Source: Candolleomyces eurysporus (Eukaryota; Basidiomycota; Agaricomycetes; Agaricales; Psathyrellaceae). From it: 64,000 bases of DNA. Position 1 is the stretch's first letter. The number at the start of each line of letters is the position of its first letter. A program made the position numbers and the translations under genes. Shown one piece after another: positions 45,650 through 63,323 of this stretch. Where the stretch lies: contig JANBPK010000730.1 in NCBI GenBank assembly GCA_027579435.1, forward strand, positions 124,001 to 188,000, written 5' to 3'. The notes beneath the pieces are model-generated. The model searched no databases, was not told the origin of the DNA, and saw only the letters and a program-made list of their open reading frames with translations.

Positions 45650-46634
45650 AATTGTTCATGATATGCAAGCAAAGACGACTTTCTTACCCCTGCCACTGGA
45701 TAGAAGTTGGTAGGACTACATACTACTACTAATCATGTACCAGAGACTGTCCCAGAGACTCTTTTTCTACTCGTTATGATCCTCGAATAATAGACGACGA
45801 ATGAGCTGATCGATATTTGCGTGACTCCTGTATAGTAATGTGGACCTGCAACAGGTAAATGAAGGGCAAGGACTGCTAATATTTTGCTTTCACTCCCGTT
45901 GAAGGTAAAGCCGCTGACAAAGCTTGTTTGGAATCGAAGCTTCTGCCCAAGTGTGCTGCCTGGACTCCGGGTGGCGTGTGCCATTCAGCTAAACACCCTC
46001 TGGTTCTTACACTGGTCCAGGTCTTGAACTCCGAGAATCTACAGCCTTTCGAGCGCCAGTCCTGCGAATACTAGAAACTCTCACTCGGATTCTTCTGGCG
46101 GCACGCTCGGGGATAATCTTTACGGAACTACCGACACACAGTGAAGCTCAAGGCTGTTGGCAAACGCGCCTACTTCTTGCCGCTTTTGCAGAGCCACGCC
46201 CTAGGAGATTCCTCTGCTACGAGGCTGGAGAACGCACAATTGCAGTCTTGATCTCCGGGACAATCGAGTTTGGGGGGTCGACTACGATACGAAGACTTTA
46301 AAGGAATCTCTTATCCTTATCATACTACTACTACAACCGTTTTCTGAACCTGCCCGGTCTGTTTTCTCCGCGGCAGAGGTTTACTAAGCGTCTAACGCGC
46401 CATTCTTCGATTTGGGCCTTTTTTTTTCTTACCAATCAATCCTTTCAAGGCTCTCTGGAGAGTGTACACTAAGCAAGAGAGCCTTCAGTGTCTTGCTAAG
46501 CCAAAAGCTGTCGCCATTTGGTGTCTACAAACGCGATCTTTAACCGTTCTGGAGACCTATAAAACCTGGGCTGTCCTCGCAAGAAATGACTCCATCCAAG
46601 TCATAAAGAACTTCTACGGCGACTACATTCAATC
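45600..46634 (+). repeat. Flank duplicated upstream of AKR copies A and B (partner 48946-50008)
   Basis: The GH79 3' end and the following kilobase up to AKR-A recur before AKR-B: shared blocks include GGACTACATACTACT, AATAATAGACGACGA and GTGGACCTGCAACAGG. It forms the left part of the repeated unit that carries the reductase. Confidence 0.75.
46558..46564 (+). promoter_or_regulatory. TATA box of AKR-A
   Basis: TATAAAA within the conserved block CCTATAAAACCTGG, about 77 bp before the start codon. The same block precedes AKR-B, C and D. Confidence 0.65.
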
Positions 46635-48183
46635 ATGTCTCTTGAAGAGATCTTCCCTCCTGCCCCAGCACCTCGCTCTAAGCTTGGAGTCTACCGTCAA
46701 CTGTCCACCCTCGCTGGTGTCCGCGTCTCTCCTCTATGCCTGGGAGGTCTGGGCATTGGGGACTCGTCGTTGTACAAGTATAACTTCGGGGAGACCACCA
46801 AGGAGAGCAGTTTCAAACTCTTGGATGCTTACTTCGATCTGGGCGGTAACTTCATTGATACCGCCAACTGGTAGTGAGTAGCATTCAAGATATCGGCCCG
46901 CGTGGATTGATTAAAAATTCGCTTATGCGCCTACAGCGGCGAACAGACCTCTGAGATTTTCCTTGGCGAATGGGCCGAGAAGCGAGGTGTCCGGGACCAG
47001 CTTTTCCTCGCCACGAAGGTGAGAATGCCCGCCGTTTACTTATTTAGTCTGGGATAGCTCATGCCACACAATCTCCACCCATTATAGTATAGCGTCGGTT
47101 GGCCCAGGACCGATCCAACCGTCCAGCAGAAAATCCTCTATGCAGGGAACGGCACCAAGTCCATCCGTCTTAGCGTTGAAGGCTCGCTGAAGAAGCTGCG
47201 AACCAGTTACATCGATCTACTCTATGTCCACTTCTTTGATTTCTCGACGAGTATTGAAGAATTGATGCAAGCTCTGCATGCGGTTGTTCTCAGGGGACAG
47301 GTGCTTTACCTGGTCAGTGGACCCTTTTCCAAGAAAGGGTCGCGGTTGGCTGACATCCTTTCCTTTATATTCGGCAGGGTATCTCCGACGCCCCTGCTTG
47401 GGTCGTCTCCCAAGCTAATCAATATGCTCGCGATCACGCTTTAACACCGTTCTCCGTTTACCAGGGATCTTGGAGTATCCTGGACCGCTCTTTCGAGCGG
47501 GAGATCATCCCTATGGCACGAAGCCAAGGTCGGTATCCGTTCACGTGGCTCGGGTTTTCTTATTGGGTCTTACAACCACTTATACAGGCATGGCGCTTGC
47601 TCCGTGGGGCGTTCTTGCCGGAGGCAAGATTCGCTCTGACGCCGAAGAGAAGCAGCGTCTGGAATCTGGTACGCTTGGTCGAGGAAGCGCAGACAGTTGG
47701 AAACGCACCCCAGATGAGAAGAAGATCTCGAATGCGCTCGAGAAAGTTGCAGCTCAGATCGGGGCGAAGAGTCTCAATGCCGGTAAGGGTCTCATGGCCC
47801 TTCTAAGCATGGTGCATAGTAGACTAAACGAGCACCATAGTCGCTATCGCATATCTGATGCACAAGACCCGCTATGTCTTCCCTATCATCGGTGGTAGAA
47901 AGGTTGAGCACTTGCAGGACAACATCGAAGCGCTGGATATTGCCCTCACCAAGGAGCACATCGACTTTTTGGAAAGCATTCTACCCTTTGACAAAGGGTT
48001 CCCTACCGCTTTCATCGTGAGTTTCAGTTTAGCAAATGTCGTAAAACCCGGACTGACCGGTGGAATCTGTGTTAGGGTGACGGGACTGGGCCAACTCTGT
48101 TCATCCGTTCCAGTGGATGGACATCTGAATGGCCTGTTGCTGGTCCGATTGTTGGATCCAGGGCTGAACTGAAGGATGCTTGA
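46635..48183 (+). CDS. Aldo-keto reductase A (aryl-alcohol dehydrogenase type)
   Basis: Seven exons (46635-46873, 46937-47018, 47088-47312, 47378-47528, 47588-47782, 47841-48016, 48076-48183) give 391 residues. The AKR fold is clear: [25 protein letters not shown] with catalytic Asp and Tyr, ATKY with the Lys, and LLYVHFFDF with the His of the Asp-Tyr-Lys-His tetrad. The QANQYARDH and C-terminal NADP-binding region follow. The family includes yeast Aad and norsolorinic-acid-reductase-like enzymes, which reduce aryl or aliphatic aldehydes and ketones with NADPH in the cytosol. The substrate is unknown. It is the first of four tandem copies, and remains of the secreted precursor lie downstream on the opposite strand. 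This copy is intact. Confidence 0.92.
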
Positions 48184-48329: not shown

Positions 48330-48480
48330 TTGCATCGTCAAGGACTCGATCCACGGCATCATTTAACACCTTAGTTGCTGTCTTCTTGGCCGAGCTCGAA
48401 CGGATCACGCTCATTAAAATCCTCGAAATGTTCAAAGTTGCTTTCCTCCAAGTCACTTAAAAGCACAGCAAACATTATAG
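48330..48480 (-). pseudogene. Relic of secreted multi-peptide precursor (C-terminal module)
   Basis: The minus strand reads SDLEES-NFEHFEDFNERDPFELG and then a stop. It aligns with the acidic spacer and third AREPFKLG module of the intact precursor at 62547-63323. Isolated and broken. Confidence 0.6.
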
Positions 48481-48671
48481 CTGCCCTTAGCTCATCTATC
48501 TAATTGTTGCGCGTCGTCTTCCGCTTGTGACATAGGAACTGCTCTCAATTGACGCGACTTTTTGGCTTATGAATATATTATTGTAGGTATCAACCTTGCA
48601 GATATATGAAACTACAGCGGAGACTACTTAAATCCAACACAGCCAGTCCGCAAACGAGGTGGTAAGGCACC

Positions 48672-48945
48672 ATATCTCTAATCAAGCACATGAAGGGACC
48701 GAACCTCAACATCATCCGCATCGTATAAGTCGCGCCACTCCAAGTCGAAGTCTGAAGGACCGAACATTCCGTCATCGAGTTCCCTGAACCCGAGAATATG
48801 AGCAGTGCGCACAATTTGGTTGGCAATATTCAACTCCTTGCTGACAGCGCCCCCAATTCTCCTGAACGTCCGGTCCGGATTGAAGGGTTTCTGGGCACCG
48901 AGGCAGGCGAGTTCGTCCGCGTCGAGCTCGCGCTAAAAAGGTTTT
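48672..48945 (-). pseudogene. Relic of secreted multi-peptide precursor
   Basis: The minus strand preserves RELDADELACLGAQKPF, a Lys/Arg-containing helical module, FRELDDGMF, an acidic stretch, and an ending like the LDELD terminus of the intact precursors. The first exon with the signal peptide is missing; at its 5' side (about 48945) the relic is fused to a copy of the GH79 3' end. Confidence 0.7.
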
Positions 48946-48992
48946 GGTCTCAGCGGTTATTGAAATGTTCGTCGTCGCTAGTGGATTGAAGA
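48946..48992 (+). pseudogene. Fragment of the GH79 last exon at a duplication breakpoint
   Basis: Plus-strand bases resemble the last codons and 3' flank of the GH79 gene (compare SAVVGGFIVGSGLTR-stop at 45603-45649 with the decayed SAVIEMFVVASGLKS-stop here), followed by the shared TTCATGAT flank. It marks the left end of the unit carrying AKR-B. Confidence 0.7.
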
Positions 48993-49931
48993 GTTAGAGC
49001 TGTTCATGATGTAAAGTTAAAGACGATTTCCTCAATCCTGCTAGTAGTTAGAAGCTGGTGGGGACTACATACTACTCATGTACCAAGGACTGACCAGAGG
49101 CTCTTTCTATGGTAGTTATGGTTTGCGATCGTGCTCTAAATAATAGACGACGAGTGAGCTGATTGATATTTGCGCAACTCCTGCATGGTAACGTGGACCT
49201 GCAACAGGTGTCTGACCGGTAGGGACTGAATATTTTGCTTTCACTCCAGCCACAGTGGGAGCAAAGCTGCTGACAAAGCTTGTTTGGAATCAAAGCTTCT
49301 GCCCAAGTGTGCTGGTGGCGTATGCCGTTTTCAACCATAAACACCTCTGTGGTTCTTACACTGGTCCAGGTCTTGAACTCGGAGAATCTACAGCCTTCGG
49401 AACGCCAGTCCTGCAAATACTAGGAACCTAATACCCCTGCCATCTACTTGGCTCTGCATACGTAGTGGCTTCGGCAACTCCCACTCGGGAATTCTTCTGA
49501 CAGCACGCTCCGGGATAACCTTTACGGGACTACCGATACACACTGGAGCTTGGGGCCATTGGTAAATACGCTTACCTCTTGCCGCTTCTTGAGAGCAACG
49601 TGTTGGGAAATTACTCTGCTATGGGGCTGAAGAACGCACAATTGAACTATGTTGATCTCCGGAACGATCGAACTTAGGGTCGACTACGATACGGTATCAG
49701 AACTACTACTGCAATCGTTTTCTAAACCCGTCTCGGTCTGTGTCGCGGAAGAGTTTTACTAAGCATCTAAGGCCTCGTTCTTCGATTCGAGTCATTTTTT
49801 GTTAATCAATCAATCCTTTCATGGTTTTCTGGAGTGTATACACTAAGCAAGAACGCCTCCAGTGTCTTGCTAAGCCGAAAGCTTTCGTCATTTGTTGTCT
49901 ACAAACGCGATCTTGAACCGCTTTGAGGATC

Positions 49932-49938
49932 TATAAAA
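49932..49938 (+). promoter_or_regulatory. TATA box of AKR-B
   Basis: TATAAAA in the conserved CTATAAAACCTGGACTGTCC block, about 77 bp before the ATG at 50009. Confidence 0.6.
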
Positions 49939-50008
49939 CCTGGACTGTCCTTGCAAGAGATGACTCCATCCAAGTCACAGAGAACTTCCACGGCAACCAC
50001 ATTCAATC

Positions 50009-51575
50009 ATGTCCATTGCAGAAGCCTTCCCTCCCCCCCCCAGCACCTCGCTCTAAGCTTGGAGTCTACCGTCAGCTATCCACCCTCGCTGGTGTCCGCG
50101 TCTCTCCTCTATGTCTGGGAGGTCTGGGCATCGGCGATTCGTCGCTGTTCAAGTATAACCTCGGGGAGATCACAAAGGAAAGCAGTTTCAAACTCTTGAA
50201 CGCTTATTTCGATCTGGGCGGTAATTTCCTAGATACTGCCAACTGGTAGTGAGTAGCATTCGCCCGTGAGCGTTGATTTATTGGAATCCACTTATCCGTC
50301 TACAGCTGCGAACAGACCTCTGAGATGTTTATAGGCGAATGGGCCGAGAAACGAGGTGTCCGGGATCAGCTCTTCATAGCCACCAAGGTGAGAACGCCCA
50401 CTGTTCTACATATCTAGGTCCGGGTAGCTCATCCCGAGTATTCTTCTTCCCCGTTATAGTATAGCGTCGGTTGGCCCAGGTCCGACCCAAACATCCAGCA
50501 GAAAATCCTCTACGCAGGGAACGGCACCAAGTCTATCCGCCTCAGCATCGAAGGCTCGCTGAAGAAGCTGCGAACCAACTACATCGATCTGCTTTATGTC
50601 CACTTTTATGACTTCTCGACGAGTATTGAGGAGTTGATGCAAGCTCTTCATGCGGTTGTTCTCAGGGGACAGGTACTTTACCTGGTTAGTCAACCTCTCT
50701 CGGATTATTCATATTCACCAAGAAAAAATACGGTGCGCTAACACGCTTTCGCTTTTGGCAGGGCATTTCCGACGCCCCTGCTTGGGTCGTCTCACAAGCC
50801 AATCAATACGCTCGCGACCATGCTTTGACACCATTCTCCGTTTACCAGGGACCTTGGAGTATTCTGGACCGCTCTCTCGAGAGGGAGATCATCCCGATGG
50901 CACGAAGCCAAGGTTGGTATCGTTTCACGTGCCTTTTATTTCTTTATGGTGTCTGAAGTACAACCACCTATACAGGCATGGCGCTTGCTCCATGGGGCGT
51001 TCTTGCCGGAGGCAAGATTCGCTCTGACGCTGAAGAGAAGCAGCGTCTGGAATCTGGCACACTTGGCCGAGGAGGCGCAGATGGTTGGAAACGCACTCCA
51101 GATGAGAAGAAGATCTCGGATGCTCTCGAGAAAGTTGCAGTTCAGGTCGGGGCGAAGAGTCTCAATGCCAGTGCGTCTCATTGTCCGTTTAAGCATGGCG
51201 CGCAATTTACTAAACGAGGATCGATATCACAGTTGCTGTTGCATATGTGATGCACAAGACCCGCTACGTCTTCCCTATCATTGGCGGTAGAAAAGTTGAG
51301 CACTTGCAGGACAACATCGAGGCGCTGGATATTGCCCTCACCAAGGAACACATCGACTTTTTGGAAAGCATTTTACCCTTTGACAAAGGGTTCCCTACCT
51401 CTTTCATCGTGAGTTTCAGTCCAGTAAATGTTGTAAAACTCGGACTGACTAGTGGAACGTGTGTCAGGGTGACGGGACCGAGCAAACTCCGTTCATCCGT
51501 GCCAGTGGATGGACATCTGAATGGCCTGTTGCTGGTCCGATTGTTGGATCTAGGGCTGAAGTGACGGAAGCTTGA
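50009..51575 (+). pseudogene. Aldo-keto reductase B, frame break in exon 1
   Basis: Same seven-exon plan as copy A (50009-50248, 50306-50387, 50460-50684, 50762-50912, 50976-51170, 51233-51408, 51468-51575), with catalytic Asp, Tyr, Lys and His codons kept. Exon 1 has one base too many: a run of nine Cs (about 50033-50041) directly after MSIAEAF puts the ATG out of frame with [11 protein letters not shown]. Eight Cs would restore it. Total exon length is a multiple of three plus one. Everything downstream is clean, so either this is a sequencing error in a homopolymer or a very recent inactivation. Residue after the catalytic Tyr is Cys rather than Gly. Confidence 0.8.
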
Positions 51576-51655
51576 TGAATGTGATTGCTGGTCTATTAAA
51601 TTTTTCATGCTTCTCTTCCGAGTGACAATCCGAATCGATTCAAATTTCTTCTGGC

Positions 51656-51870
51656 TCAACGAATGCGTGCTATTGCGAATATTGACCCGACTTTAAGGGG
51701 AATTACAGCGGCGCATCGCAAAGGAACTCTATTCACAACATCATTCAACACTTTGCTTGCTGTCTTCTTGGGCTCGCCAAGGAACCAACCAACCTTGAAC
51801 GGATTACGCTCATTCAACTCGACATCTTCAACGTTGTGTTCCTCCGAGTCAATCAAAAGCGCAGAGACGG
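51656..51870 (-). pseudogene. Relic of secreted multi-peptide precursor
   Basis: The minus strand reads SEEHNVEDVELNERNPFKVG-WFLGEPKKTASKVLND, which aligns with the acidic spacer plus third cationic module of the intact precursor. The signal-peptide exon and first modules are absent. It sits downstream of AKR-B exactly where intact precursors sit downstream of AKR-C and D. Confidence 0.65.
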
Positions 51871-52467
51871 AGGGGGTCCGATTCTGAGTACCGAGTCACC
51901 AGTTAGGCGCTGCCTGTTGCCGTCAAATCCACTGCCAAACGATGCCCGCAGGTATACGCTCGTCACTATGATAGCAAGGTCTTTCATCAATTCTCACTCC
52001 CACACTATGTACTTACCGCGATTTGAGGCTTTAGGTCTCGAACTGGGAACCCGTAGCCCGTGGTGCCCGAGTGCCTGACAGACTCCAAATGTTTGCCCTG
52101 TGCTTGAAGCTTATCTCTTACCGAGTCGTCGACTACTTAGTCTTGAACAACCTGCCCCGTTTGACACCCACTGCTGGACCTCAGTATCACAGAAGATGAA
52201 AGAAATACCTTGATTTCCTGGAAAATCTGGCTCTACAAAAGAAACGTCTCGGAGCGTCCGAGTCTTAGCCTTCCGCAGCAGTGGTTTCCTCACCTTGCGG
52301 GTTGGACGGACGGGGCCTTCAATATCGATGGGGCTCTATAGAGCTGAAGTGGCAACTTGCCGTTTTTCATTGGTACGTTGTGCCGTTACCACCTCCTTAT
52401 CTACCGGCCGAGAGCTGTCGTCACCTACTGTCTCCATATCATGACGTCTGCAGCCATTCTGGAGGCC

Positions 52468-52474
52468 TATAAAA
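52468..52474 (+). promoter_or_regulatory. TATA box of AKR-C
   Basis: TATAAAA in GGCCTATAAAACCTGAG, about 70 bp before the ATG at 52541. Shared with the other AKR copies. Confidence 0.65.
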
Positions 52475-52540
52475 CCTGAGTTATCCATGGGTCAAGTCCA
52501 GTCAACTCACACAGAGCTTACTTGCTAGTACCCCTCAAAC

Positions 52541-54092
52541 ATGTCCTTCGCAACAATCTTCCCTCCCGCCCCTACGCCTCGCTCCAAGCTTGGAGTCTAC
52601 CGTCAGCTATCTACCCTTGCTGGCGTCCGTGTCTCTCCTTTGTGCCTTGGAGGCATGGGTATCGGAGACTCCTCTCTGTTCAAGTATAACCTCGGTTCGA
52701 TCACCAAGGAGAGCAGCATGAAACTCTTGGACGCTTATTTCGACCTAGGTGGTAATTTCATTGATACCGCTAACTGGTAGTGGGTAGCCCTCACCATACC
52801 CGTATTGGCGTCTGCTTACCCGGGATATATCCAACTTGTAGCAGCGAACAAACATCTGAGATGTTCATTGGAGAATGGGCTGAACAGCGAGGTATTAGGG
52901 ACCAGCTTTTCATGGCTACTAAGGTGAGGACACCTACCGTGGCACGTTCCACTCGAGCTTTGAATATACTTACACTAATAAAATTTCCTCTTCCTATAGT
53001 ACACCGTTGGATGGCCCAGGGATGACCCAAAATTCCAGCAAAAGATTCTCTACGTAGGAAACGGCTCCAAGTCTATCCGCCTCAGCGTCGAAGCCTCGTT
53101 GAAGAAGTTGCGAACGAGCTATATCGACTTGTTTTACGTTCATTTCTGGGACTATTCGACCAGTATCGAGGAATTAATGCAGGCGCTTCATGCGCTTGTC
53201 CTCAAAGGTCAAGTGCTCTACCTGGTTCGTCCATCTCAGTCTAGCTTTCACCTGATAGAGGGACCGTCAGCTGACCTATTTTTATTCTCGGCAGGGTATA
53301 TCTGACGCCCCTGCCTGGGTCGTCTCGCAAGCTAATCAATATGCTCGCGATCACGCTTTGACCCCGTTCTCCGTTTATCAGGGCTCATGGAGTATTCTGG
53401 ATCGCTCTTTCGAGAGGGAAATCATTCCTATGACTCGAAGCCAAGGTTAGTATCCACCAAACCTCTTGCTTCTTACGCAGGAGTCTGAGGAACGTCCATC
53501 TCTACAGGCATGGCGCTGGCTCCATGGGGCGTTTTAGCGGGAGGCAAGATTCGCTCCGATGCTGAAGAAAAGAAGCGTCTTGAATCTGGTACTCTTGGGC
53601 GAGGAGACGCAGACAGTTGGAAGCGCACTCCAGATGAGAAGAAGATTTCTGACGCTCTCGAGAAAGTTGCCGCCGAAGTCGGGGCGAAGAGTCTCAATGC
53701 TGGTATGTATATATCCCTACGTGGTGGATAGTACACTAAACAAGCACTATAGTCGCTATTGCATATGTGATGCACAAGACTCGCTTCGTTTTCCCCATTA
53801 TCGGTGGTCGAAAGGTCGAACACTTGCAAGACAACATCGAAGCGCTGGACATCGCTCTCACTAGGGAACACATTGAGTTTTTAGAAAGCATTTTACCCTT
53901 TGACAAAGGGTTTCCTGCCACCATCATCGTAAGTGCCATTTTGCTATCATCGTCTCGTGAAATCAGGCAAGCGCTGACGAGTCATGTCAGGGTGACGGCA
54001 CCACGTCCGCCCCTATGATCCACACAAGCGGATGGACGGCTGACTGGCCTACTGCTGGACCGATTCTTGGGTCCAGCGCTGAACTCAAGTAG
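52541..54092 (+). CDS. Aldo-keto reductase C (aryl-alcohol dehydrogenase type)
   Basis: Seven exons (52541-52779, 52842-52923, 53000-53224, 53295-53445, 53508-53702, 53753-53928, 53991-54092) give 389 residues, all in frame. The tetrad is intact ([21 protein letters not shown]), as is the NADPH-binding C-terminal half ([15 protein letters not shown]). It differs from copy A in the loop after the catalytic Tyr (Ser instead of Gly) and at the C-terminus, the part that usually shapes the substrate pocket. It is convergent with the intact secreted precursor at 54334-54940, 241 bp away. Confidence 0.92.
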
Positions 54093-54333
54093 GCACAGCG
54101 AACGCGATAGCTGCCCTTAGTTCATCTATCTCATTGTTTCACGTCATCTTCTGCTTGTGATATAAGAAATGCTCTCAATTAATGCGATCTTCTGGCTTAA
54201 CGAATACATTATTGTAGGTTTCAACCCTGGAAATATATAGAACTACAGCGGGTGAGTCGTGAAAGCCGTTAAAAAAAAAAACTCGAGTCCAACACAGCCA
54301 GTCCGCAAACGAGGTGGTAAAGGTATCATATCT

Positions 54334-54940
54334 CTAATCAAGCTCATCAAGGAACCGAGCCTCAACCTCCAAAACATCATCCGCATCCAACAAGTTGCGC
54401 TCCTCCAAGCCGAAGTCAGAGGCGTACTCCCTCTGTTCAAGGTAGATTCCGTCATCGAGTTCCCTAAACCCGAGACCCGATTTAACCGGGTTAACCGGGC
54501 TGGCGACCTTCGCGACCTTCTTGACACCGCCCGATTTTAAATTCTTCAAGAATCCGGGTTCCCGAGCTTCGTAGGCGAGTTCGTCCGCGCTGAGCTCCCG
54601 TACGTAGACATTGCCTTCCTCGTCTCGGCGGAGGATGAGCGCAACTTTTGGTAACTTGGTAGCAGGTGCGGCTTTTTTAGAGACCTTGGTGATACTTCCC
54701 CAGAAGCTAGGCTCGCGGGCTTCGATGTCGAGCAAGGAGTCGGGGTTGTCAATCGAGCGTCGGTTGACACTGCGGATATAAGAAATTTAATCAGTCGTTA
54801 GCCTTTGATGTGTGTAAAATTGAGAGATGGTATACTCACGCAGAGGACTCGAGGTACTGGGGAAGAGCGGGAGCGGGAGCAGCGAGAACGGGGGCAACGA
54901 CAAAGGCTGCGGCGACGAGTAAAGTGGATGCTTGAACCAT
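54334..54940 (-). CDS. Secreted multi-peptide precursor 1 (AREP-type, two cationic modules)
   Basis: Two exons (54940-54840, 54769-54334) give 178 residues. Residues 1-21 are a signal peptide ending VLAA. A Kex2-like RR site (37-38) precedes the acidic LDIEAREP motif. Cationic module 1 (about 55-82) ends in RR; an acidic spacer DEEGNVYVREL follows; a second EAREP (101-105) opens cationic module 2 (about 106-136), followed by RELDDGIYL, a long acidic region and the terminal LDELD. The modules contain Lys/Arg with Val/Ala/Leu in helical spacing and almost no acidic residues, whereas the spacers are dominated by Asp/Glu. No known family is recognised. The design suggests proteolytic release of several cationic peptides from a charge-balanced precursor. 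It is convergent with AKR-C and has a paralogue at 55813-56445. Confidence 0.85.
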
Positions 54941-55086
54941 TATGGATGATGTGGATTCAGGTTTGAGGATAGAGAGATTGATAAAAAGGCAGAAGCGTTC
55001 GATGTCGACTGTGTTGTAGATTCGTGAGGGAGGAGTGGCGAATGCGAGACCGGCACTGAGGAGACCATGGGCTAGCACACTAGCCC

Positions 55087-55093
55087 TTTTATA
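55087..55093 (-). promoter_or_regulatory. TATA box of secreted precursor 1
   Basis: TATAAAA on the minus strand, about 150 bp before the ATG at 54940, followed by a conserved leader. The two other precursors have the same arrangement. Confidence 0.6.
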
Positions 55094-55344
55094 CCTCGAA
55101 GGCCACGAGCATCCGTAGTCCGGCTGGAAAGGGTCACCAACGGTACCCAAATTAAATGTCATTGCGTGCGGAATCCGGGGGTGTGTGCTCATGGGATGGT
55201 GATCTAAATTAATTGAGTGACCTTGGGAGGGAACCGAACCAAGGGCTAGGACTATGCAGTTTTCGCCCTTGCGAAGGGGCTCATCAGAGGGCTTAACCGC
55301 TTGTTGCGTGATATTCGCCGAATCGATTCAAACAATGAATGCTT

Positions 55345-55515
55345 GTTATTGCGGATGTCGACTCACCAGTTAGGAAAATCACAGCGGCGCAAAGGCCTCC
55401 ATTCACGGCATCATTCAACACTTCGCTGTCTTGCTCGCCAAGGAAGCAACCAAGCTTGATCCGCCTCGAAATCTTTCAAGTTGCGTTCCTCCAAGTCACT
55501 TCAAAGCGCACCGAC
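55345..55515 (-). pseudogene. Relic of secreted multi-peptide precursor
   Basis: Shares the layout and bases of 48330-48480 and 51690-51870 (block around GCATCATTCAACAC and the Cys/Leu-rich shifted remains of the acidic spacer and module 3). The frame is lost. It lies between precursor genes 1 and 2. Confidence 0.5.
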
Positions 55516-55812
55516 GGAGGGAGCCTACTGCTGGACCGATTCTTGAGTCCAGCGCTAGCGCTGAGCTCAAGTAGGCAGAGAGAACGTGATAGCTGCCCTT
55601 GGTTCGTCTATCTCATTGTTGCGAGTCGTCTTCCGCTTGCGATGTCCAACATGCTCTCTGATGCGATTTTTTGGCCAACGAATATATTATTGTAGGTATC
55701 AACCCTGGAAATATATAGAACTACAACGGGTGAGTCATGAAAGCCGTTAAAAAAAAGACTACTCGAATCCAACATAACCAGTCCGCAAACGAGGTAGTAC
55801 GGTATCATATCT

Positions 55813-56445
55813 CTAATCAAGCTCATCAAGGAACCGAGCCTCAACCTCCAAAACATCATCCACATCCAACAAGTTGCGCTCTTCCAAGCTGAAGTCAGAG
55901 GGATCGTACTCCCTCTCTTCAAGGTAGATTCCGTCATCGAGTTCCCTCAACCCTAGACTCGAGGCAGGGCGCGTAATCGGGCGAGCGACCTTCACTACAC
56001 CCCCTCCCTTCTTACCAAAACGGACTTTATCAAAGAATCCCGGCTGCCGGGCTTCGAGGTAGGCGACTTCGTCCGCGCCGAGCTCGCGAACGTAGACATT
56101 GCCTTCCTCGTCTCGCCGGAGGAGGAGAGGGGCAACCTTTCGTACGATAGGCGCAACNTTTTTTTACGATAGGTGCGACTTTGTTAAAGACCCTGGTAAC
56201 ACCTCCCCAGAAGCTAGGCTCGCGGGCTTCGATGTCGATCAGGTCGGGGTTGTCGATCGAGCGTCGGGTGACACTGCGGATATAAGAAATTTAACCAGTC
56301 GTTCGCCTTTGATGTGCGTAAAAATTGAGAGATGGTATACTCACGCAGAGGACTCGAGATACTGGGGAAGAGCGGGAGCGGGAGCAGCGAGAACGGGGGC
56401 AACGACAAAGGCTGCGGCGACGAGCAAGGTGGATGCTTGAACCAT
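55813..56445 (-). CDS. Secreted multi-peptide precursor 2 (AREP-type)
   Basis: Two exons (56445-56345, 56273-55813). The signal peptide and exon 1 (101 nt) are nearly identical to precursor 1. Exon 2 keeps RRSIDNPD, DIEAREP, a first cationic module extended by a VAPIV repeat, RRDEEGNVYVREL, a second motif changed to EARQP, a second cationic module rich in Lys/Gly/Val, and LRELDDGIYLEERE with the acidic C-terminus ending LDELD. The N at 56158 beside a T run adds one base to exon 2 (total length is a multiple of three plus one). Dropping it restores the frame, so the gene is probably intact. Confidence 0.8.
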
Positions 56446-56591
56446 TATGGATGATGTGGATTCAGGTGTGAGGATAGAGAGATTGATGAAGAGACAGAAG
56501 CGTTCAACGCGGACTGTGTTGAAGATTTGTGAGGGAAGAGTAGTGAGTGTGAGACCAGCTCTGAGGAGACCATGGGCCAGAACACCAATAC

Positions 56592-56598
56592 TTTTATA
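56592..56598 (-). promoter_or_regulatory. TATA box of secreted precursor 2
   Basis: TATAAAA on the minus strand about 150 bp before the start codon at 56445, at the same distance as in precursor 1. Confidence 0.6.
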
Positions 56599-56699
56599 CC
56601 TCCAAGGCCACGGGCAACCGTAATCCACCTGGAAAGGGTCCCCAACGGTGAATTGACAAGGCACCCAGATTAGATGGCATTGCGTGCGGAATGTGTGCT

Positions 56700-57110
56700 C
56701 ACGGGATGGTAATCTAAATTAACAGGTGTTTCAATACGGGGTTCATCAGACACTGCCATCCCTCGAAACTGAATACTTACTAGCCTCATTCAATCCGGAC
56801 GCGTTCCCTTGCGGTCACACAGATCCCGGGGATACCTGAGAGCAGGTCTGCTATTCTCTGAGTGATTTTTGGTAAAGCCTCTCAGAAATCGAACACAACA
56901 GTATCAGTTTCGATAAGTGAACGGTCAGCACCCAGGGGGATCTTCCTTTTGATGCACAGATCCGCGACTTTGAAGGGCTCTGTGAGCATTTAGGTAATCC
57001 CGGATCTACAAGCAGAGTGGCAGTGAGCACTGTGTACCGTAACGACAAGGGACATTGATAAGGTGATGCTTACCCGACAATATGGCCAGGCACTGCCCAC
57101 CGTCCACCCA
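56700..57110. repeat. Duplicated far-upstream flank of the precursor genes (partner 63590-63960)
   Basis: The segment beyond the promoter of precursor 2 recurs beyond the promoter of precursor 3 with many substitutions. Shared blocks include GTTTCAATACGG, GACACTGCCAT, CTGAATACTTAC and GAGTGGCAGTGAG. It shows that the repeated AKR/precursor unit extends at least 0.5 kb past the precursor. Confidence 0.7.
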
Positions 57111-57926
57111 GCCTCGATCAAAACGAAGAAGGGGTCAATACCCTCGATATCACCATAGATACAGCGAAATGTAGGCATGGATACTGAGTACTTGCCTTGA
57201 GAGTTGTTGGTAGAGAAGACTGATCAGAGGACGGTGTCGATTTGTACCACGAAGTGTCTTATCAGATCCATGTGTTGGATGGTATGGCATAGATGGATGG
57301 CAGGCGCAATCACTGGTTTCCAAAGTGGTTTACCCGTGAAACCGTCCTCGACAGAAAACAGAAAACAGAAAGCGACTACATATGAGGGGGAATGGGTGAT
57401 TCGGAACGAATGGGATAACTACTTGAAGATGTGGAGTGATGGTGATGGATGGAATGAACACCGCTGAAGGCCCAAAAAAGTCGGCACATCCAAGGATTTG
57501 GTTCGTTGGACGTTTCCATACGCATTTCCATCATGATATTCGCATCGAAAGACAGAATGCCTAGAATGCCTTTTACACACAGCCTTGTTTTCCCTCTGTT
57601 TCTCCCGATTGCCCTTGAGCGACGTATCTCCTTTGTCTCAGCCTACAGAATTAGAATTCAGATGCCATCTTCATGTGACGAGTAACGTGGGGATGCCATC
57701 TTAGGAGGTGTTACATTATGATTCGACCATTATTTCATGAATAAAGCATGGTCAACGCCAGGCAGTCAAGGACATTGGAATCATGGAGCGAGAGGCTCGT
57801 CCGCGCACGGCTCCGATGGCGTGGGTATAATTTGCGGATCAAATAAAGCCTTTATTAGGTCACCCCGCCGAGGATACTGTTTTCCCTCCCTTCCCTTACT
57901 TTGCTCCTCGGCTTACCATGCGTTAT
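57111..57926. other. Intergenic region, no feature seen
   Basis: No supported gene, RNA or repeat apart from ordinary AT-variable sequence. Confidence 0.4.
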
Positions 57927-59520
57927 ATGACAGAGATCAATGAACGTGCTGAGCGCTTTTACCCTTTGTGCTCTCCATGGCAGGCTGTCAACGAATACGA
58001 CGACCTTGTCGCCGACGTTCGGAGGGTGTAGTATGAGGGCAATATCTATATCGACCAGGTCCCCATCACTCTTTTCAGCCCTATCCTCGCACGACTTCAA
58101 CAGCAGCTTCAAGACCGGGTTATCCTTGATTAAGTTGCCGCTTCTCCAGATCAATTGAAGAACGCCTTCAGTTTCGTAAAGGGGGCAACAAAGCTTGTCG
58201 ATACTCAAGAAGATCGTCTGACGGCTGTACGCGGCCAACTCGAACAACTCTTGGCAGGATCGACGACAAAGGGCCAAAAGCCGATTTGGGCCGAGCGCAT
58301 TTCGTGGACGCCGTACACAAATCCGACCACAATCTGGTGGTCAGACGATCACGAAAAGGGCTTCCTAACTTTGATCCTCGAGCTCACTGCTGTGCCCGGA
58401 TTAAATGGCGACCCCCTCCACAAAGCTGTGGTGGACTACGCCACGATTGTATTACACGACAAGGTACGTTTAGTTTCGACGTAGTAATCTTTCCCTTTTC
58501 ATTACTCATGGAACATAAAATAATAGCATCGCAGGAATCGCGGAGCGACAAATTTCCCTACCATCCTCCTCGGCATCGCAGGGTCCCAACTCCGTGCCGC
58601 AGCTGCAATTTACGTCGGGTCGTCCATCTACATCTCGACACTGATTTCCTTGAATACTGCTGCCCCCATCGGATTCCATTCTACCAGCGACACGCTCGCC
58701 CTCGCCCGGGTGTTCCAAAGTCTATTCGAGTTCGTCTCTAGCTCGAGGCCTACTACCGTAGCATCAACACAAGTAGCACCGGGGGGGATAACGATATGTC
58801 AGAAGAACTCCGGGATAGGTTCCCCGGCAGCCTCTTCACCGTCTCAACGCCTGTTCACCCTGGTGTCATTTTGCCGGGTCTCACTTACCGGGGCTTCCTC
58901 TCAAGCAAGACCGGACAGATGATATGCCCTTTGGTCGATTTGGGGAAGGAGACGACAGCCAAGTCCGTCGCTACTCTCAACGACGGTACCGAGGTTGTCG
59001 TCAAATTCACAGCGAGTTACAACCCCGCCGCCCATCGACTCCTATGCGATTCTGGGCTTGCTCCGAGGCTTTATTTCTGTGAACGTGTAATGGGGGATGT
59101 GGCCATGGTCGTCATGGAGAGAGTGCGCAATTGTGTGCCGCTGGCGTACCTGCTGAACCACGGTCCTGAACGAACTGGAAGTGGGGTGAATCTCGTCGTC
59201 AAGAAGGTCGAGGAAGCGGTCCGCCTTCTCCACGAGAGACATTGTTTTTGGCAATTTGCGGGACGAGAATATCCTTTGCGTGGCCAAATGCAAATCGAGC
59301 GTCGCCTCAGTCCTTTGAGTTGATTTCGATTGGGCTGTCAAGGATGGCGAAGGACGGTATCCCGCAGGACTCAACGACAGCGGCAAGTTGGATTCGGACG
59401 AGAAAAGCTCTGGCGATCGTCAGTGGGCCGAAGGTGTACAGCCGTTTGGTGTCATGAAGAAGGCGCACGATGGTGGCAGGTGGAAAGACTCAGGAAGATG
59501 GTGAATGATTCGGTCACGAT
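57927..59520 (+). pseudogene. Broken kinase-like (PKL-fold) gene
   Basis: A plus-strand frame opens at the ATG 57927 (MTEINERAERFYPL) and runs through two in-frame stop codons (TAG near 58029, TAA near 58131) into a clear coding stretch at 58143-58463 (LVDTQEDRLTAVRGQLEQ). An intron ends before HRNRGATNFPTILLGIAGS. At least three shifts follow. The C-terminal half has kinase-like landmarks: a VVVKFTASYN lysine strand, MVVMERV hinge, VFGNLRDENIL in place of the HGDxRxxN catalytic loop (Asp replaced by Asn) and VDFDWA in place of DFG. This build resembles the large agaricomycete families of kinase-like proteins with an N-terminal nuclease- or crinkler-like part. Clearly inactivated. Confidence 0.65.
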
Positions 59521-59964
59521 TTAGTTATTTGCACTCATTGAGTTCTCAGCCCTTTCGGCCATTCTTAATCTCCAAAATTTCGCGTGTGCGCGGTTGTCCC
59601 TCAGCCTACCATCTCCATGGCTGTCACCAATTTGGGCGACTAGTACGAATGCCAGATTATGCGCAGAGGTTGCCAAGCCGTAAAACTTTATACATGTGTG
59701 CAGATTCCTCTAGGTGGCATATTCAATGTCCTGTGATCTCGGTCTATCGCATGCGCATCGCTAATAGAACGTTCGACCAAGTCAAAGTTTAGAGACAGAA
59801 GCCAGTGGGCCCTGACAAATTGGTTGCTGTAAAGCCTGCTTCTCGTCCGTTTATTATGATAGCAAACTTTGTCTTCCGTCATTGACAATTCTTATTTCCA
59901 CGATTCTTTAAATAACCGTCGAGTTAAGGTTTATGTGTGGCCTCCAAGTGAGAAACCGGTGTCC

Positions 59965-60333
59965 GTGATGCCAGACTCCACATGCTTTCTCTGTGCTTGA
60001 AGCTTTATCTTCCTCGTTTTGTCGCCGACGTAATCACAACCTTTCCCCGACTAATCCATTTCATGATCTACTGTTTCTCAGCACAACAGTAAGATGACAG
60101 AATACGAAATATCCTATTTCCTGGGAATTTACGTCGTAGATGCTCGTGGTGCCAGACTCCACATGCTTTCCCTGTGTTTGAAGCATTTATCTCCCTCCTC
60201 ATTCTGTAGCCGACGTAATCACAACCTTTACCGCCTTTACCAGACTACTTCATTTCACCGTCTGCTAAATCTCAGCACAATAGCAAAATGACAGAATACG
60301 AAATCTCCTATTTCTTGGGAATCTACGTTGTAG
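59965..60333 (+). repeat. Two direct repeats of about 180 bp upstream of AKR-D
   Basis: Two copies (about 59965-60140 and 60146-60333) share TGCCAGACTCCACATGCTTT, the CCGACGTAATCACAACCTTT block, CTCAGCACAA and ATGACAGAATACGAAAT...GTAGA. A diverged single copy lies upstream of AKR-C (about 52060-52250). They may be promoter elements; the short frame they contain (MTEYEISYFLGIYVV) is repeated only because the DNA is. Confidence 0.75.
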
Positions 60334-60629
60334 AGCTCAAGAACGACCTTAATCTCCTGCACAATCGAGGCCTAGGAAAGGACTGGCAGCAAAGAATGGA
60401 CCAGGAACGTTTGAGTCCAGATCTTAGCCTTCCTCCTTCCGCAGCGGTGGAGTGGTTTACTAAGATTTCAAGCCCAACTTATCTTCTACGGTTCTATTCA
60501 CTTCCCAATCTTTCTATATTTATAGATGCATGAGTAGAAGTGGACATTGTGCCGTTACTATCCACTGCAGCTGAAATTTGTCGTGACCTACTGTCTCCGA
60601 CTAGTGACGTCTACACCCGTCTGAAGGCC

Positions 60630-60636
60630 TATAAAA
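60630..60636 (+). promoter_or_regulatory. TATA box of AKR-D
   Basis: TATAAAA in GGCCTATAAAATCTGGG, about 70 bp before the ATG at 60702. Confidence 0.6.
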
Positions 60637-60701
60637 TCTGGGCGATCCATGTCAAGTCCACTCAAGTCACAGACGACTTATCTACTTGTACCTCTCTAAG
60701 C

Positions 60702-62265
60702 ATGTCTATCGCAACTGTCTTCCTTCCCGCCCCTGCACCTCGCTCCAAGCTTGGGGTCTACCGTCAGCTGTCCACCCTTGCTGGCGTCCGTGTCTCTCCT
60801 TTGTGCCTTGGAGGCATGGGCATTGGAGACTCCTCTCTGTTCAAATATAACCTTGGTTCGATCACCAAGGAGAGCAGCATGAAACTACTGGACACTTATT
60901 TCGACCTTGACGGTAATTTCGTCGATACCTCTAACTGGTAGTGAGTCACTTTCACAGTACCTTTTCTACTGGCGTTCGCGTTCGCTGACCCTAGATGCAC
61001 CCAACCTATAGCAGCGAACAAAGGTCTGAGACGTTCATCGGCGAATGGGCCGAGAAGCGAGGTATTCGCGATCAGCTTTTCATTGCTACCAAGGTGAGAA
61101 TATCTGCCAGAGCCTCGAGTATACCTCATTAATTTCTTTCCTTCAATTTCTAGTACAGCGCCGGCTGGCCCAGGGACGACCCAAACTTCCAGCAAAGGTT
61201 CTTTTCACAGGAAACGGCTCCAAGTCTATCCGCCTCAGCGTCGAAGCTTCGTTGAAGAAGCTGCGAGCGAACTACATCGACTTGTTCTATGTTCATTTCT
61301 GGGACTTCTCGACTAGTATTGAGGAGCTGATGCAGGCTCTTCATGCGCTTGTCCTCAAAGGACAGGTGCTCTACCTGGTTTGTCGACCTCTCGAGCTACT
61401 ATTCGATAAATAGACAGTCACCTAACNTTTTTTGTTCAATTTGTGCAGGGTATATCTGACACCCCTGCTTGGGTGGTCTCCCAAGCTAATCAGTATGCTC
61501 GTGATCACGCTTTGACCCCGTTCTCCGTTTCCCAGGCTCGTGGAGTATTCTGGATCGCTCTTTCGAGCGGGAAATCATTCCTATGGCTCGAAGCCAAGGT
61601 TAACATCCATCAAACTTCTTGTTTCTTCACGCAGGTTCTAATGACCATACATTTATACAGGCATAGCGCTCGTCCCATGGGGAGTTTTAGCAGGAGGCAA
61701 GATTCGCTCTGATGCTGAAGAGAAGCGGCGTCTTGAATCTGGCACTCTTGGGCGAGGAGACGCCGACAGCTGGAAGCGCACTCCCGATGAGAAGAAGATT
61801 TGTGATGCCCTCGAGAAAGTTGCCGCTGAAGTCGGGGCGAAGAGTCTCAATGCTGGTGTGTATATATCTCCCGGCCAATCCTCCTTAAATTTGAAACGTT
61901 ATGGATAGTACACTAAACGAGCACGACAGTCGCTATTACCTATTTGATGCACAAAACTCGCTTCGTCTTCCCTATCATTGGTGCTAGAAAGGTCGAGCAC
62001 TTGGAGGACAACATCAAAGCGCTGGATGTCGCCCTCACCAAGGAGCACATTGACTTCTTGGAAAGCATTTTACCCTTTGACAAAGGGTTCCCTGCCAGCG
62101 AAATCGCGAGTACCACTTTCCTGTCATCATCTTGTAAAATCGGGGCTTACCACTCCATGTCAGGGTGACGGTACCACGCCCATCCCCATGATCCGTGCCT
62201 GCGGATGGACCACTGACTGGGCTGCTGCTGCTCCAATCTCCGGCTCCAGCGTTGAACTGAACTAG
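60702..62265 (+). pseudogene. Aldo-keto reductase D, two one-base deletions
   Basis: Same seven-exon layout as copies A-C (60702-60940, 61012-61093, 61154-61377, 61449-61598, 61661-61855, 61930-62105, 62164-62265). Exons 3 and 4 are each one base shorter than in the intact copies: one base is lost near 61195 (before VLFTGNGSKS) and one near 61536 (after SVSQ), so the total is two bases short and the frame is not restored. Other changes fit relaxed selection: LDTYFDLDGNFVDTSNW in the catalytic Asp region, and a GC donor (GCGAGT at 62106) where the others use GT. An N lies in an intron (61427). Probably a recent pseudogene, although its neighbouring precursor is intact. Confidence 0.8.
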
Positions 62266-62546
62266 GCACCATATTGACGTGGTGAACGCGATTTGCCCAC
62301 GATCTGTCCTTAGTTTGTGTATTACTTTGCGTATAGTATTGCTCCGTACTTCTTCTCACTTGTATTATTACAATTGGACACTCAAATCGAGCTTTTCCTG
62401 TTCTGGCATAACGAATGCTTGATATTGCGGGTATCGACCTCCGTTAAGTAAGTTTACAGTAGTGTACCGTAAAGGCCATCGAAAAAAACCGACAACTCCT
62501 AAGCAACACAGTCAATCCGCAAACTGGATAGTATGGTATCGTGTCT

Positions 62547-63323
62547 CTAATCAAGCTCGTCAAGGGATCGAGCCTCAACCTCCATAATCTCATCCGCATC
62601 CAACTCGCGCAAGCCGAGGGAGTGAGCCGTAGAGCTGACCTTGTCCGCAACCCTCAACACCTTTCCTGCTACGCCCTTGGCCTTGCTGAGGAATCGACCG
62701 AGCTTGAATGGTTCACGCGCGTCCAGCTCGTCGAAATCTTCAAAGTCGCGCTCCTCCAACTCAAAGTCGGAGGGATCGAACTCCCTCTCCTCGAAGTAGA
62801 CGCCGTCGTCGAGCTCCCTCAGCCCGAAGCTCTGAGCGGTGCTCGCAACCCGGTTGGCGACGCGCAAGCCCTTGCCGACAGCGCCCCGAATCTTCTTGAA
62901 AGCCCGGCCCAGCTTGAAGGGCTCTCGGGCCTGGAGGTAGGCGAGTTCGTCCTCGTCGAGCTCGCGGACGTAGACATTGCCTTCCTCGTCACGGCGGAGG
63001 AGGAGGGGTGCAGCCTTGAGTGCGATGGGTGCAACCTTCTTGACGACTCGGCCGATGCTTCGGAATGCCTTCTTGAAGCTGAAGGGGTTGGGCTCGCGGG
63101 CTTCGATGTCGAGCACGTCGGGGTTGTCGATCGAGCGAGCAGCGACGCTGTAGATAGAAGAAATTCAATCAGTCGTTGGCCTCGGTGTGTAGAAAACCCA
63201 TGTATGATATACTCACGATTCAGGAGCGATGTGCCTGTGGGCGTGGTGGGGATGAGTGGGAGCAGCAAGGACGGGGCCAACGATGAAGGCGGCGGCGACG
63301 AGCAAAGTGGATGCTTTAACCAT
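62547..63323 (-). CDS. Secreted multi-peptide precursor 3 (AREP-type, three cationic modules)
   Basis: Two exons (63323-63217, 63147-62547) give 235 residues, the fullest member of the family. A signal peptide (1-21) is followed by a His/Pro-rich propart. AREP motifs at 52-55, 109-112 and 179-182 each open a cationic module: 56-88 (nine Lys/Arg, no acidic residue, ending RR), 113-146 (nine Lys/Arg, none acidic) and 183-216 (eight basic, one acidic). Modules 2 and 3 share EPFKLGR, a V/A-rich helical core, STA.S and GLREL. Spacers 89-108 and 147-178 and the tail 217-235 are dominated by Asp/Glu. Modules 2 and 3 resemble cecropin-like helices in composition and amphipathic spacing, a resemblance and not a homology claim. 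Release of several membrane-active or effector peptides by secretory proteases is inferred. It is convergent with AKR-D. Confidence 0.88.

What the first reader, a model, noticed from the sequence alone, without database searches (positions are those of the whole stretch)
54334..63323. New-looking family of secreted multi-peptide precursors with alternating cationic modules and acidic spacers
Three intact minus-strand genes (54334-54940, 55813-56445, 62547-63323) encode a signal peptide followed by two or three Lys/Arg-rich, probably helical modules. Nearly all begin with Ala-Arg-Glu-Pro (EARQP once) and the modules are separated by Asp/Glu-dominated spacers. In the largest copy the modules carry about +9, +9 and +7 charge with at most one acidic residue each. 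Such charge-balanced multi-module design is typical of precursors of antimicrobial or otherwise membrane-active peptides. I know of no described fungal family with this AREP-module layout; novelty would need a search.
Basis: partly seen in the sequence, partly recalled or inferred. Interest (0 to 1): 0.85.

Follow-up and report, generated by a model that had tools for sequence, protein, structure and literature searches.

The report
Mushroom precursors of cecropin-like peptides
A mushroom carries a family of secreted precursor proteins that look built to be cut, by an unusually regular code, into several small positively charged helical peptides resembling the antimicrobial peptides of insects, fish and frogs.

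Summary
The window is Candolleomyces eurysporus (Agaricales). Genes 1 and 3 are intact one-intron genes; gene 2 is interrupted at an N in the assembly. Three searches list 151 proteins (113 analysed); named ones are mostly Agaricales, with some Clonostachys. A second, nine-module candidate gene lies elsewhere in the genome.

The precursors follow a processing grammar. Cationic cores are bounded by single-Arg [L/I/V]-x-x-Arg sites, usually followed by Asp/Glu, rarely by dibasic sites. In 31 homologues, acidic stretches hold 329 Arg but 1 Lys. Prolines after the start Arg fall almost only on even positions, forming X-Pro dipeptides (EP, DP, EPNP). Kexin cutting at LxxR plus STE13/DPP-IV trimming would need exactly this. 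A profile of 94 cores hits 12 PDB chains, 10 of them antimicrobial peptides (cecropin, moricins, pleurocidins and others; best E 0.004). Reversed and shuffled controls hit none.

Best reading: multi-peptide precursors of membrane-active, probably antimicrobial, peptides, a new variant of the KEX2-processed repeat proteins (KEPs). Processing is strongly supported by sequence, activity is inferred, and nothing has been shown at the bench.

The parts
62547..63323 (-). Gene 3, three-module precursor, 235 aa (NCBI H1R20_g3151, P0001); exon 1 63217-63323, intron 63148-63216, exon 2 62547-63147
63264..63323 (-). Gene 3 signal peptide region (residues 1-20), assigned by inspection
   Evidence: no signal-peptide predictor was available
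62997..63083 (-). Gene 3 core 1 (residues 58-86, 29 aa, +7), preceded by IEAR|EP-NP, followed by RR|DE
62820..62918 (-). Gene 3 core 2 (residues 113-145, 33 aa, +8), preceded by LQAR|EP, followed by GLR|EL; weak moricin resemblance
62610..62708 (-). Gene 3 core 3 (residues 183-215, 33 aa, +6), preceded by LDAR|EP, followed by GLR|EL
54334..54940 (-). Gene 1, two-module precursor, 178 aa (within NCBI H1R20_g3147, P0021); exon 1 54840-54940, intron 54770-54839, exon 2 54334-54769
54631..54708 (-). Gene 1 core 1 (26 aa, +5, low amphipathicity)
54466..54555 (-). Gene 1 core 2 (30 aa, +6, low amphipathicity)
55813..56445 (-). Gene 2, two-module precursor (NCBI H1R20_g3148, P0019); intron 56274-56344; frame interrupted in this assembly at an N (56158)
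55948..56040 (-). Gene 2 core 2 (31 aa, +6), preceded by LEAR|QP
48636..48932 (-). Remnant of a precursor gene (one degraded module plus C-terminal spacer)
51743..51865 (-). Remnant of a precursor gene (part of a module 3)
46590..48172 (+). Aldo-keto reductase gene copy (outer limits of ORF pieces; intactness not checked)
49917..51564 (+). Aldo-keto reductase gene copy (outer limits of ORF pieces; intactness not checked)
52529..54018 (+). Aldo-keto reductase gene copy (outer limits of ORF pieces; intactness not checked)
60702..62265 (+). Aldo-keto reductase gene copy (outer limits of ORF pieces; intactness not checked)

Best explanation
These genes encode secreted multi-peptide precursors. [quoted passage not shown] (2) A kexin-type protease cuts after single arginines in [Leu/Ile/Val]-x-x-Arg sites, usually followed by Asp/Glu, at both ends of the cationic modules. 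(3) A carboxypeptidase (KEX1-like) removes the end arginine, and an STE13/DPP-IV-like dipeptidyl peptidase strips the X-Pro dipeptides (EP, DP, EPNP) that keep the peptide's N-terminus capped and acidic. (4) This frees about 18-36-residue cationic amphipathic helices that often begin with Phe or Lys/Arg-Phe. (5) These act outside the cell on membranes of competitors, most likely bacteria or other microbes, in the manner of cecropins, moricins and pleurocidins. Acidic spacers keep the basic cores neutralised until cutting. Steps 1-4 are inferred from sequence regularities; step 5 rests on resemblance. No step has been shown by experiment for this family.
For: Cleavage code: hydrophobic P4 at 83 of 83 core starts and 281 of 296 Arg|Asp/Glu sites, against 92 of 346 other Arg; in 82 further proteins 219 of 233 starts. 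Basic residues in acidic context are 329 Arg to 1 Lys; in basic context 162 to 193. Charge balance alone would not distinguish Arg from Lys. Published Kex2 preference: P1 Arg, variable P2, P4 Leu/aliphatic, expanded motif LxxR (PMC8528282, passages); apparent single-Arg products when C. cinerea KEPs are expressed in Pichia (PMC9769878). Trimming code: prolines after the start Arg at positions 2, 4, 6 = 69, 26, 4 of 83 starts, none at odd positions 1-9. In 82 further proteins, 233 starts gave 125, 6, 3 at positions 2, 4, 6 and 0, 0, 1, 0, 6 at positions 1, 3, 5, 7, 9. In 95 core ends there was no proline in the first six positions. The best Kex2 site, Lys-Arg, is depleted inside cores (23 against 64.7 expected) while Arg-Lys is enriched (110 against 64.2). 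AlphaFold gives no global fold (pLDDT 52.7, pTM 0.25) but helices at 60-85, 115-142 and 185-212; core 2 alone is a helix 2-30 (pLDDT 79.9). Cores are more amphipathic than their own shuffles (mean z 2.03, 62% at p<0.05 of 259). Profile of 94 cores against the PDB: 10 of 12 hits are antimicrobial peptides, best SibaCec-A E=0.004; shuffled 0 of 1, reversed 0 of 9. Pfam on the same 94: 7 of 11 matches to antimicrobial families, none among the shuffled or reversed. A separate locus in the same genome follows the code in 9 of 9 modules, with hydrophobic P4 at 31 of 31 Arg|Asp/Glu sites. The genome has three loci with the kexin P-domain and one DPP-IV-type locus.
Against: No peptide or activity has been observed. 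Synthetic peptides from other C. cinerea KEPs showed no antibacterial activity, and KEP peptides persisted in single kex knockouts (PMC9769878). Gene 1's cores are poorly amphipathic. Of seven PDB searches with single sequences or cores, only searches had antimicrobial peptides as best hits, with full-length gene 3, listed moricin fifth of six at E=1.4. All single-query E-values are 0.018 or weaker. No Pfam match to a single core reached its curated cut-off, and 4 of 11 matches are to non-antimicrobial families. Arg-Arg and Lys-Lys are not depleted in cores, and 69 LxxR sites remain inside cores (107.6 expected). 14 of 83 and 108 of 233 starts have no X-Pro prefix. Core and spacer identity among four orthologues are similar, and one orthologue's third core is strongly diverged. 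XP could also serve as a helix cap. Counts come from related sequences and are not independent.
Confidence: 0.66

Rival explanations
1. The precursor is cut as described, but the peptides are surface-active structural peptides (like Rep1 of Ustilago maydis) that coat aerial hyphae or fruiting bodies, not antimicrobials.
For: KEX2-released Rep1 peptides form amyloid-like surface fibrils (PMC8528282 and PMC9769878). Several relatives have long Asn/Gln/His tails on their cores, which may favour assembly.
Against: Median core charge is +5 and the directional sequence resemblance is to antimicrobial peptides.
Confidence: 0.12
2. The peptides are intercellular signals (alpha-pheromone-like), with X-Pro trimming as in Ascomycota pheromones.
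For: KR followed by XA/XP repeats is the alpha-pheromone layout, and basidiomycete KEPs with STE13 signatures exist (PMC6339444 passages).
Against: Cores are long (median 32 aa) and variable, 270 distinct among 311; pheromone cores are short and conserved (recalled). [quoted passage not shown]
Confidence: 0.07
3. The protein is not cut: it is a polyampholyte of alternating charged blocks that acts whole, e.g. as a cell-wall or coacervating structural protein.
For: Alternating charge blocks with a modest net charge (-8 for gene 3 after residue 20); no cleavage has been observed; AlphaFold shows no global fold.
Against: Does not explain Arg but not Lys in spacers, the hydrophobic P4, even-numbered X-Pro prefixes, or Lys-Arg depletion in cores.
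Confidence: 0.08
4. The cut peptides act against animals or fungal competitors (cytolytic defence against nematodes, insects or other fungi) rather than bacteria.
For: Cationic amphipathic helices are often broadly membrane-lytic (recalled); relatives occur in Clonostachys, a genus that includes mycoparasites (recalled).
Against: No direct evidence either way; the nearest solved structures are antimicrobial peptides.
Confidence: 0.07

Closest known systems
KEX2-processed repeat proteins (KEPs) of fungi
   Same: Signal peptide, several repeated peptide cores in one precursor, kexin-type sites between them, optional STE13 XP/XA motif (PMC6339444 and PMC7329392 passages; PMC9769878 sections and passages).
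   Different: Boundaries are mostly single-Arg LxxR|[DE]; only 118 of 1399 Arg|[DE] sites in 113 proteins are dibasic, and an approximation of the published dibasic rule passes 10 of 113. The cores are long cationic segments, mostly helical in character, alternating with acidic spacers.
Insect cecropins and moricins (also fish pleurocidins, frog magainins)
   Same: Length, charge, amphipathic helix; weak directional profile similarity. X-Pro removal before the mature N-terminus is how preprocecropin and melittin precursors are matured (recalled).
   Different: No statistically firm homology; several peptides per precursor; fungal; boundaries LxxR.
Ascomycete alpha-pheromone precursors
   Same: Kexin site followed by repeated X-Ala or X-Pro dipeptides, then the peptide (PMC6339444 passages).
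   Different: Core peptides are longer, cationic and variable; single-Arg sites.
Kex2-processed pro-domain (K2PP) effectors with LxxR sites
   Same: Same expanded Kex2 motif LxxR (PMC8528282 passages).
   Different: Those remove one N-terminal pro-domain from a folded effector; here many sites free many peptides.

Membership tests
KEX2-processed repeat proteins | N-terminal secretion signal | tested here: inconclusive
   A hydrophobic N-terminus ending near Ala20 is plain in genes 1-3 and in most full-length relatives displayed, but no predictor was run.
KEX2-processed repeat proteins | Three or more repeats of at least 8 aa between dibasic KR/KK/RK/RR sites (rule of PMC7329392) | tested here: not met
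   Approximate test: 10 of 113 proteins pass (1 of the first 31), none from this window; with LxxR as the cut, 51 of 113 pass (7 of the first 31). So most members, though not all, fall outside the rule.
KEX2-processed repeat proteins | Peptides actually released by kexin | not testable with these tools
   Needs peptidomics.
Cecropin/moricin family | Homology above the curated Pfam cut-off | tested here: not met
   Moricin 13.5-15.7 bits against a cut-off of 27.6.
Cecropin/moricin family | Cationic amphipathic helix freed by proteolysis | tested here: inconclusive
   Helix and charge supported; release untested.
Alpha-pheromone-like precursors | Kexin site followed by XA/XP dipeptide repeats | tested here: met
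   X-Pro prefixes in 69 of 83 and 125 of 233 core starts; chains of two or more in 26 and 4 of these.
Alpha-pheromone-like precursors | Short conserved pheromone core | tested here: not met
   Median core 32 aa, 270 distinct cores in 311.

The most novel reading that the evidence does not exclude
Agaricales mushrooms (and Clonostachys) have evolved, independently of animals, a large multi-gene arsenal of cecropin-like antimicrobial peptides made as tandem arrays. One of the three agaricomycete kexins may be specialised to LxxR|[DE] sites (single kex knockouts still made KEP peptides, PMC9769878, so this part is open), and X-Pro trimming may be the arming step. Modules multiply by duplication of whole exons, as in the nine-module second locus. 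Genome surveys keyed on dibasic sites would have missed most of it.
Probability: 0.4. Interest if true: 0.9.

Novelty: new variant of a known kind. Interest (0 to 1): 0.78.

Why it matters
It would give mushrooms a genetically encoded, multi-product source of helical antimicrobial peptides. It would also suggest a use for the three kexins and the STE13 activity reported in agaricomycetes (PMC9769878), whose peptide products have no known function there. The even-proline LxxR code is a simple search rule that could reveal many more fungal peptide precursors, each prediction directly testable by peptidomics and synthetic peptides. The similarity to cecropin-type precursors would be a notable convergence.

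Tried and rejected
Known structural or enzymatic family: rejected. Pfam gave only sub-threshold Moricin for gene 3 and nothing for gene 1. Full-length gene 3 against PDB sequences gave a designed protein, ribosomal L7, moricin (1x22, E=1.4, fifth of six rows) and a zona pellucida fragment, none convincing.

Pfam matches of the nine-module second gene (e.g. DUF502, 29.7 bits against a cut-off of 23.8) were rejected as repeat artefacts: no stretch of the DUF502 match passed on its own. Two 20-residue pieces of that gene gave no Pfam family. Single-core PDB searches with gene 3 cores 1 and 3, the Clonostachys core and the second-locus core gave nothing relevant.

Simple charge-balance design as the whole explanation: rejected because the spacers use Arg but not Lys. 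Dibasic kexin sites as the main cut: rejected because only 16 of 296 Arg|[DE] sites in the first 31 homologues are dibasic. Stronger conservation of cores than spacers: tested on four orthologues, not seen. Foldseek of the AlphaFold model was not run because the model has low confidence. Rows dropped: 11 of 94 raw core starts (second Arg inside an XP prefix, or spacer Arg; the same filter was applied). Some of the 311 cores overlap (e.g. P0057). Only 175 of the cores (length 20-45, charge at least +4, at most two acidic) were clustered to the 94 representatives used, with shuffled and reversed controls. The 38 proteins new (P0114-P0151) were not counted in the code statistics.

Literature: the listings of ten searches of an open-access library showed no paper describing this family. 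Subscription papers and supplementary tables were not searched, so members may stand unnoticed in the KEP tables of PMC7329392 or PMC9769878 (one KEP type of PMC7329392, #165, includes Coprinellus and Psilocybe). Seen in part: PMC9769878 (outline, sections 3, 10 and 14, the first of three parts of section 4, passages); PMC8528282, PMC7329392, PMC6339444 and PMC13127573 (passages only). Other papers: listing only.


Full report
WHERE AND WHAT. The window matches Candolleomyces eurysporus (Psathyrellaceae, Agaricales): the closest database protein to gene 3 is H1R20_g3151 of that species at 100% over its full length, and g3147 and g3148 correspond to genes 1 and 2. Gene 3 (235 aa) and gene 1 (178 aa) each have one short intron after the signal-peptide exon. 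Gene 2 is interrupted in this assembly at an N in a homopolymer (position 56158); both pieces match an intact relative. The genes stand in an array that alternates with plus-strand aldo-keto reductase copies (Pfam PF00248) and contains two precursor remnants, which suggests repeated duplication and loss of a reductase-precursor unit (inference).

FAMILY. One search with gene 3 gave 31 proteins at E<=1; those with names are from Candolleomyces, Coprinellus and Ephemerocybe, the rest from unnamed contigs. A second search with seven divergent members gave 95 at E<=1 (82 new), the named ones including Psilocybe, Gymnopilus, Agrocybe, Hebeloma, Lyophyllum, Cyclocybe, Crassisporium, Coprinopsis cinerea (CC1G_06461) and the ascomycete Clonostachys. 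A third from a Clonostachys member gave 46 at E<=0.1. In each search only the roughly 8000 candidates sharing most words were scored, so the lists may be incomplete. None has a convincing functional name; a few carry automatic labels such as ribosomal protein L30/L7E (P0005) and DnaJ-domain protein (P0055). Many full-length members come from contigs of about 1 kb in sequencing collections and read straight across the place where the window genes have an intron. I take this (weak inference; contigs not examined) as a sign of spliced transcripts. Weak hits in so large a search are enriched for acidic, Arg-rich sequence, and I do not claim that all are homologues.

THE PROCESSING CODE. In the first 31 proteins, Arg is followed by Asp/Glu 298 of 649 times (129.7 expected from shuffles) and Lys 5 of 413. 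In acidic context basic residues are 329 Arg to 1 Lys; in basic context 162 to 193. At 83 core starts, position P4 is hydrophobic in 83 (82 Leu/Ile/Val and one Tyr). Over all Arg|Asp/Glu sites it is 281 of 296, against 92 of 346 at other Arg. Only 16 of the 296 are dibasic. In the 82 further proteins P4 is hydrophobic at 219 of 233 starts; in 75 of them that are rich in such sites, Arg|Asp/Glu is 1047 of 1796 and Lys|Asp/Glu 35 of 1152. This is the expanded Kex2 motif LxxR reported for fungal effectors (PMC8528282, passages), and apparent single-Arg products were seen when mushroom KEPs were expressed in Pichia (PMC9769878).

THE TRIMMING CODE. After the start Arg, prolines fall at positions 2, 4 and 6 in 69, 26 and 4 of 83 starts, and never at 1, 3, 5, 7 or 9. 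All position-4 prolines belong to unbroken X-Pro chains (EPNP 22, DPEP, NPDP, APAPQP, EPEP one each). Three of the four at position 6 do not. In the 82 further proteins, 233 starts in 69 proteins gave 125, 6, 3, 3 and 2 at positions 2, 4, 6, 8, 10 and 0, 0, 1, 0, 6 at 1, 3, 5, 7, 9; five of the six at position 9 come from one repeated protein, P0078. X-Pro is not universal: 14 of 83 and 108 of 233 starts lack it. Of 95 core ends, none has a proline in the first six positions. Starts with no prefix in the first set mostly begin with the same kind of residue (Phe, Lys-Phe, Lys-Leu) that follows the prefixes elsewhere. Stepwise dipeptide removal by an STE13/DPP-IV enzyme predicts even numbers; a helix-capping role for Pro does not. 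XP/XA removal by STE13 is documented for fungal precursors (PMC6339444, PMC9769878). The genome has three loci with the kexin P-domain and one DPP-IV-type locus. Three kex2 genes are reported for C. cinerea and other agaricomycetes; KEP peptides persisted in all kex knockouts there, so they are at least partly redundant (PMC9769878).

INSIDE THE CORES. 270 distinct cores (311 in all, some overlapping) have median length 32 and median charge +5. The best Kex2 site Lys-Arg occurs 23 times against 64.7 expected, its mirror Arg-Lys 110 against 64.2, Lys-Lys 175 against 133.8, Arg-Arg 49 against 42.5, and LxxR 69 against 107.6. Lys-Arg and LxxR are thus under-represented, Arg-Arg is not. Amphipathicity exceeds the cores' own shuffles (mean z 2.03; 62% at p<0.05 of 259). 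Gene 3 cores score 0.82, 0.69 and 0.63; gene 1 cores only 0.42 and 0.35. AlphaFold of gene 3 with 29 sequences has no global fold (pLDDT 52.7, pTM 0.25) but helices at the three modules, besides the signal peptide, a spacer helix at 101-110, a short C-terminal helix and two three-residue strands. Core 2 alone gives a helix 2-30 at pLDDT 79.9 without an alignment.

RESEMBLANCE TO ANTIMICROBIAL PEPTIDES. Core 2 of gene 3 against all PDB sequences returned two chains, both moricin (E 0.034, 0.093). A Coprinellus aureogranulatus core returned two, both magainin-2 (E 0.096, 0.11). Gene 3 cores 1 and 3, a Clonostachys core and the second-locus core returned nothing relevant. Ten chosen cores against Pfam gave five matches in three cores, all antimicrobial families, all below cut-off. 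To remove choice, 94 representatives (from 175 of the 311 cores, passing length and charge filters) were used. Pfam at E<=0.1 gave 11 matches, 7 to antimicrobial families (frog antimicrobial peptide, Moricin, Dermaseptin, aureocin-like bacteriocin) and 4 to others; shuffled 0; reversed 5, none antimicrobial. As a profile against PDB sequences they gave 12 chains, 10 antimicrobial: SibaCec-A (a cecropin, by its name; E=0.004), three moricin chains, four pleurocidin-type, MSI-594 and myeloid antimicrobial peptide 27. The shuffled profile gave one multicystatin and the reversed profile nine chains of ribosomal protein L5, ketohexokinase and designed repeats. The likeness therefore depends on residue order and direction, not only on composition or periodicity. 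I read it as convergence, since only one hit is below E=0.01.

A SEPARATE LOCUS. Weak matches elsewhere in the genome led me to fetch four places. A scan for frames with at least three LxxR[DE] showed them in two of the four, C230 and C215, so the choice of C230 leaned partly on the code; the X-Pro and core features were not selected for. After splicing eight introns of 53-77 nt, C230 encodes 475 aa with nine modules, each LxxR|(D/E)P followed by an 18-19-residue +4 core (typical form: FF, basic residue, KIF) and then Arg|Asp/Glu (Arg-Lys-Arg|Asp after module 8). Arg|Asp/Glu is 31 of 50 Arg, P4 hydrophobic 31 of 31, Lys|Asp/Glu 0, and it ends in ELD like many of the family. Seven introns fall at the same place inside seven modules, so modules probably multiplied as exons. 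Splice sites were chosen by eye, not by transcript.

WHAT IS NOT SHOWN. No cleavage, peptide or activity has been observed. Boundary Arg are conserved 9 of 9 in each of four orthologues, but cores and spacers otherwise differ at similar rates, and the third core of P0006 is strongly diverged. Synthetic peptides from other mushroom KEPs had no antibacterial effect (PMC9769878). Relatives with His/Asn/Gln-rich cores may do something else.

VERDICT. Precursors of multiple cationic helical peptides, cut at LxxR and trimmed at X-Pro: well supported by sequence. Antimicrobial or membrane-active function: likely but inferred. It is a new variant of the KEX2-processed repeat proteins, mostly outside the dibasic rule by which those were surveyed (PMC7329392 methods passage; approximate test).

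Noticed in passing
own genome contig C230, 12425 downward (locus L030): Second candidate precursor locus: 475 aa, nine cationic modules each with LxxR|[DE]P start, eight introns of which seven lie at the same place inside modules.
   Followed up: yes
window 46590-62265 (+): Four tandem aldo-keto reductase (PF00248) copies alternate with the minus-strand precursor genes and their remnants.
   Followed up: partly
own genome contig C215 44000-47000 (locus L031): Acidic LxxR[DE]-rich reading frames with a Lys/Ala/Pro-rich stretch, ending QLD, possibly another branch of the family; contains an N.
   Followed up: no
Clonostachys proteins P0057, P0061 (sequences viewed), P0062, P0114-P0120 (listed only): Ascomycete genus with long LxxR-delimited arrays of about 20-residue cationic cores; common descent with the mushroom family, transfer or convergence is open.
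   Followed up: partly
P0053, P0054 (Coprinellus aureogranulatus): Repeated identical 19-residue cores whose only PDB matches are magainin-2.
   Followed up: partly
window 57940-59500: Stretch with ORF fragments, including a 175-aa ORF at 58796-59323 without a Pfam match, probably a decayed gene between gene 2 and the fourth reductase.
   Followed up: no
window N positions 705, 17958, 20556, 23473, 23481, 31214, 42708, 56158, 61427: Nine single N in the window; the two I looked at (56158, 61427) lie at homopolymer runs, so small frame errors in this assembly are likely.
   Followed up: partly
P0005, P0055: Automatic annotations (ribosomal protein L30/L7E, DnaJ-domain protein) on apparent family members look wrong.
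   Followed up: no
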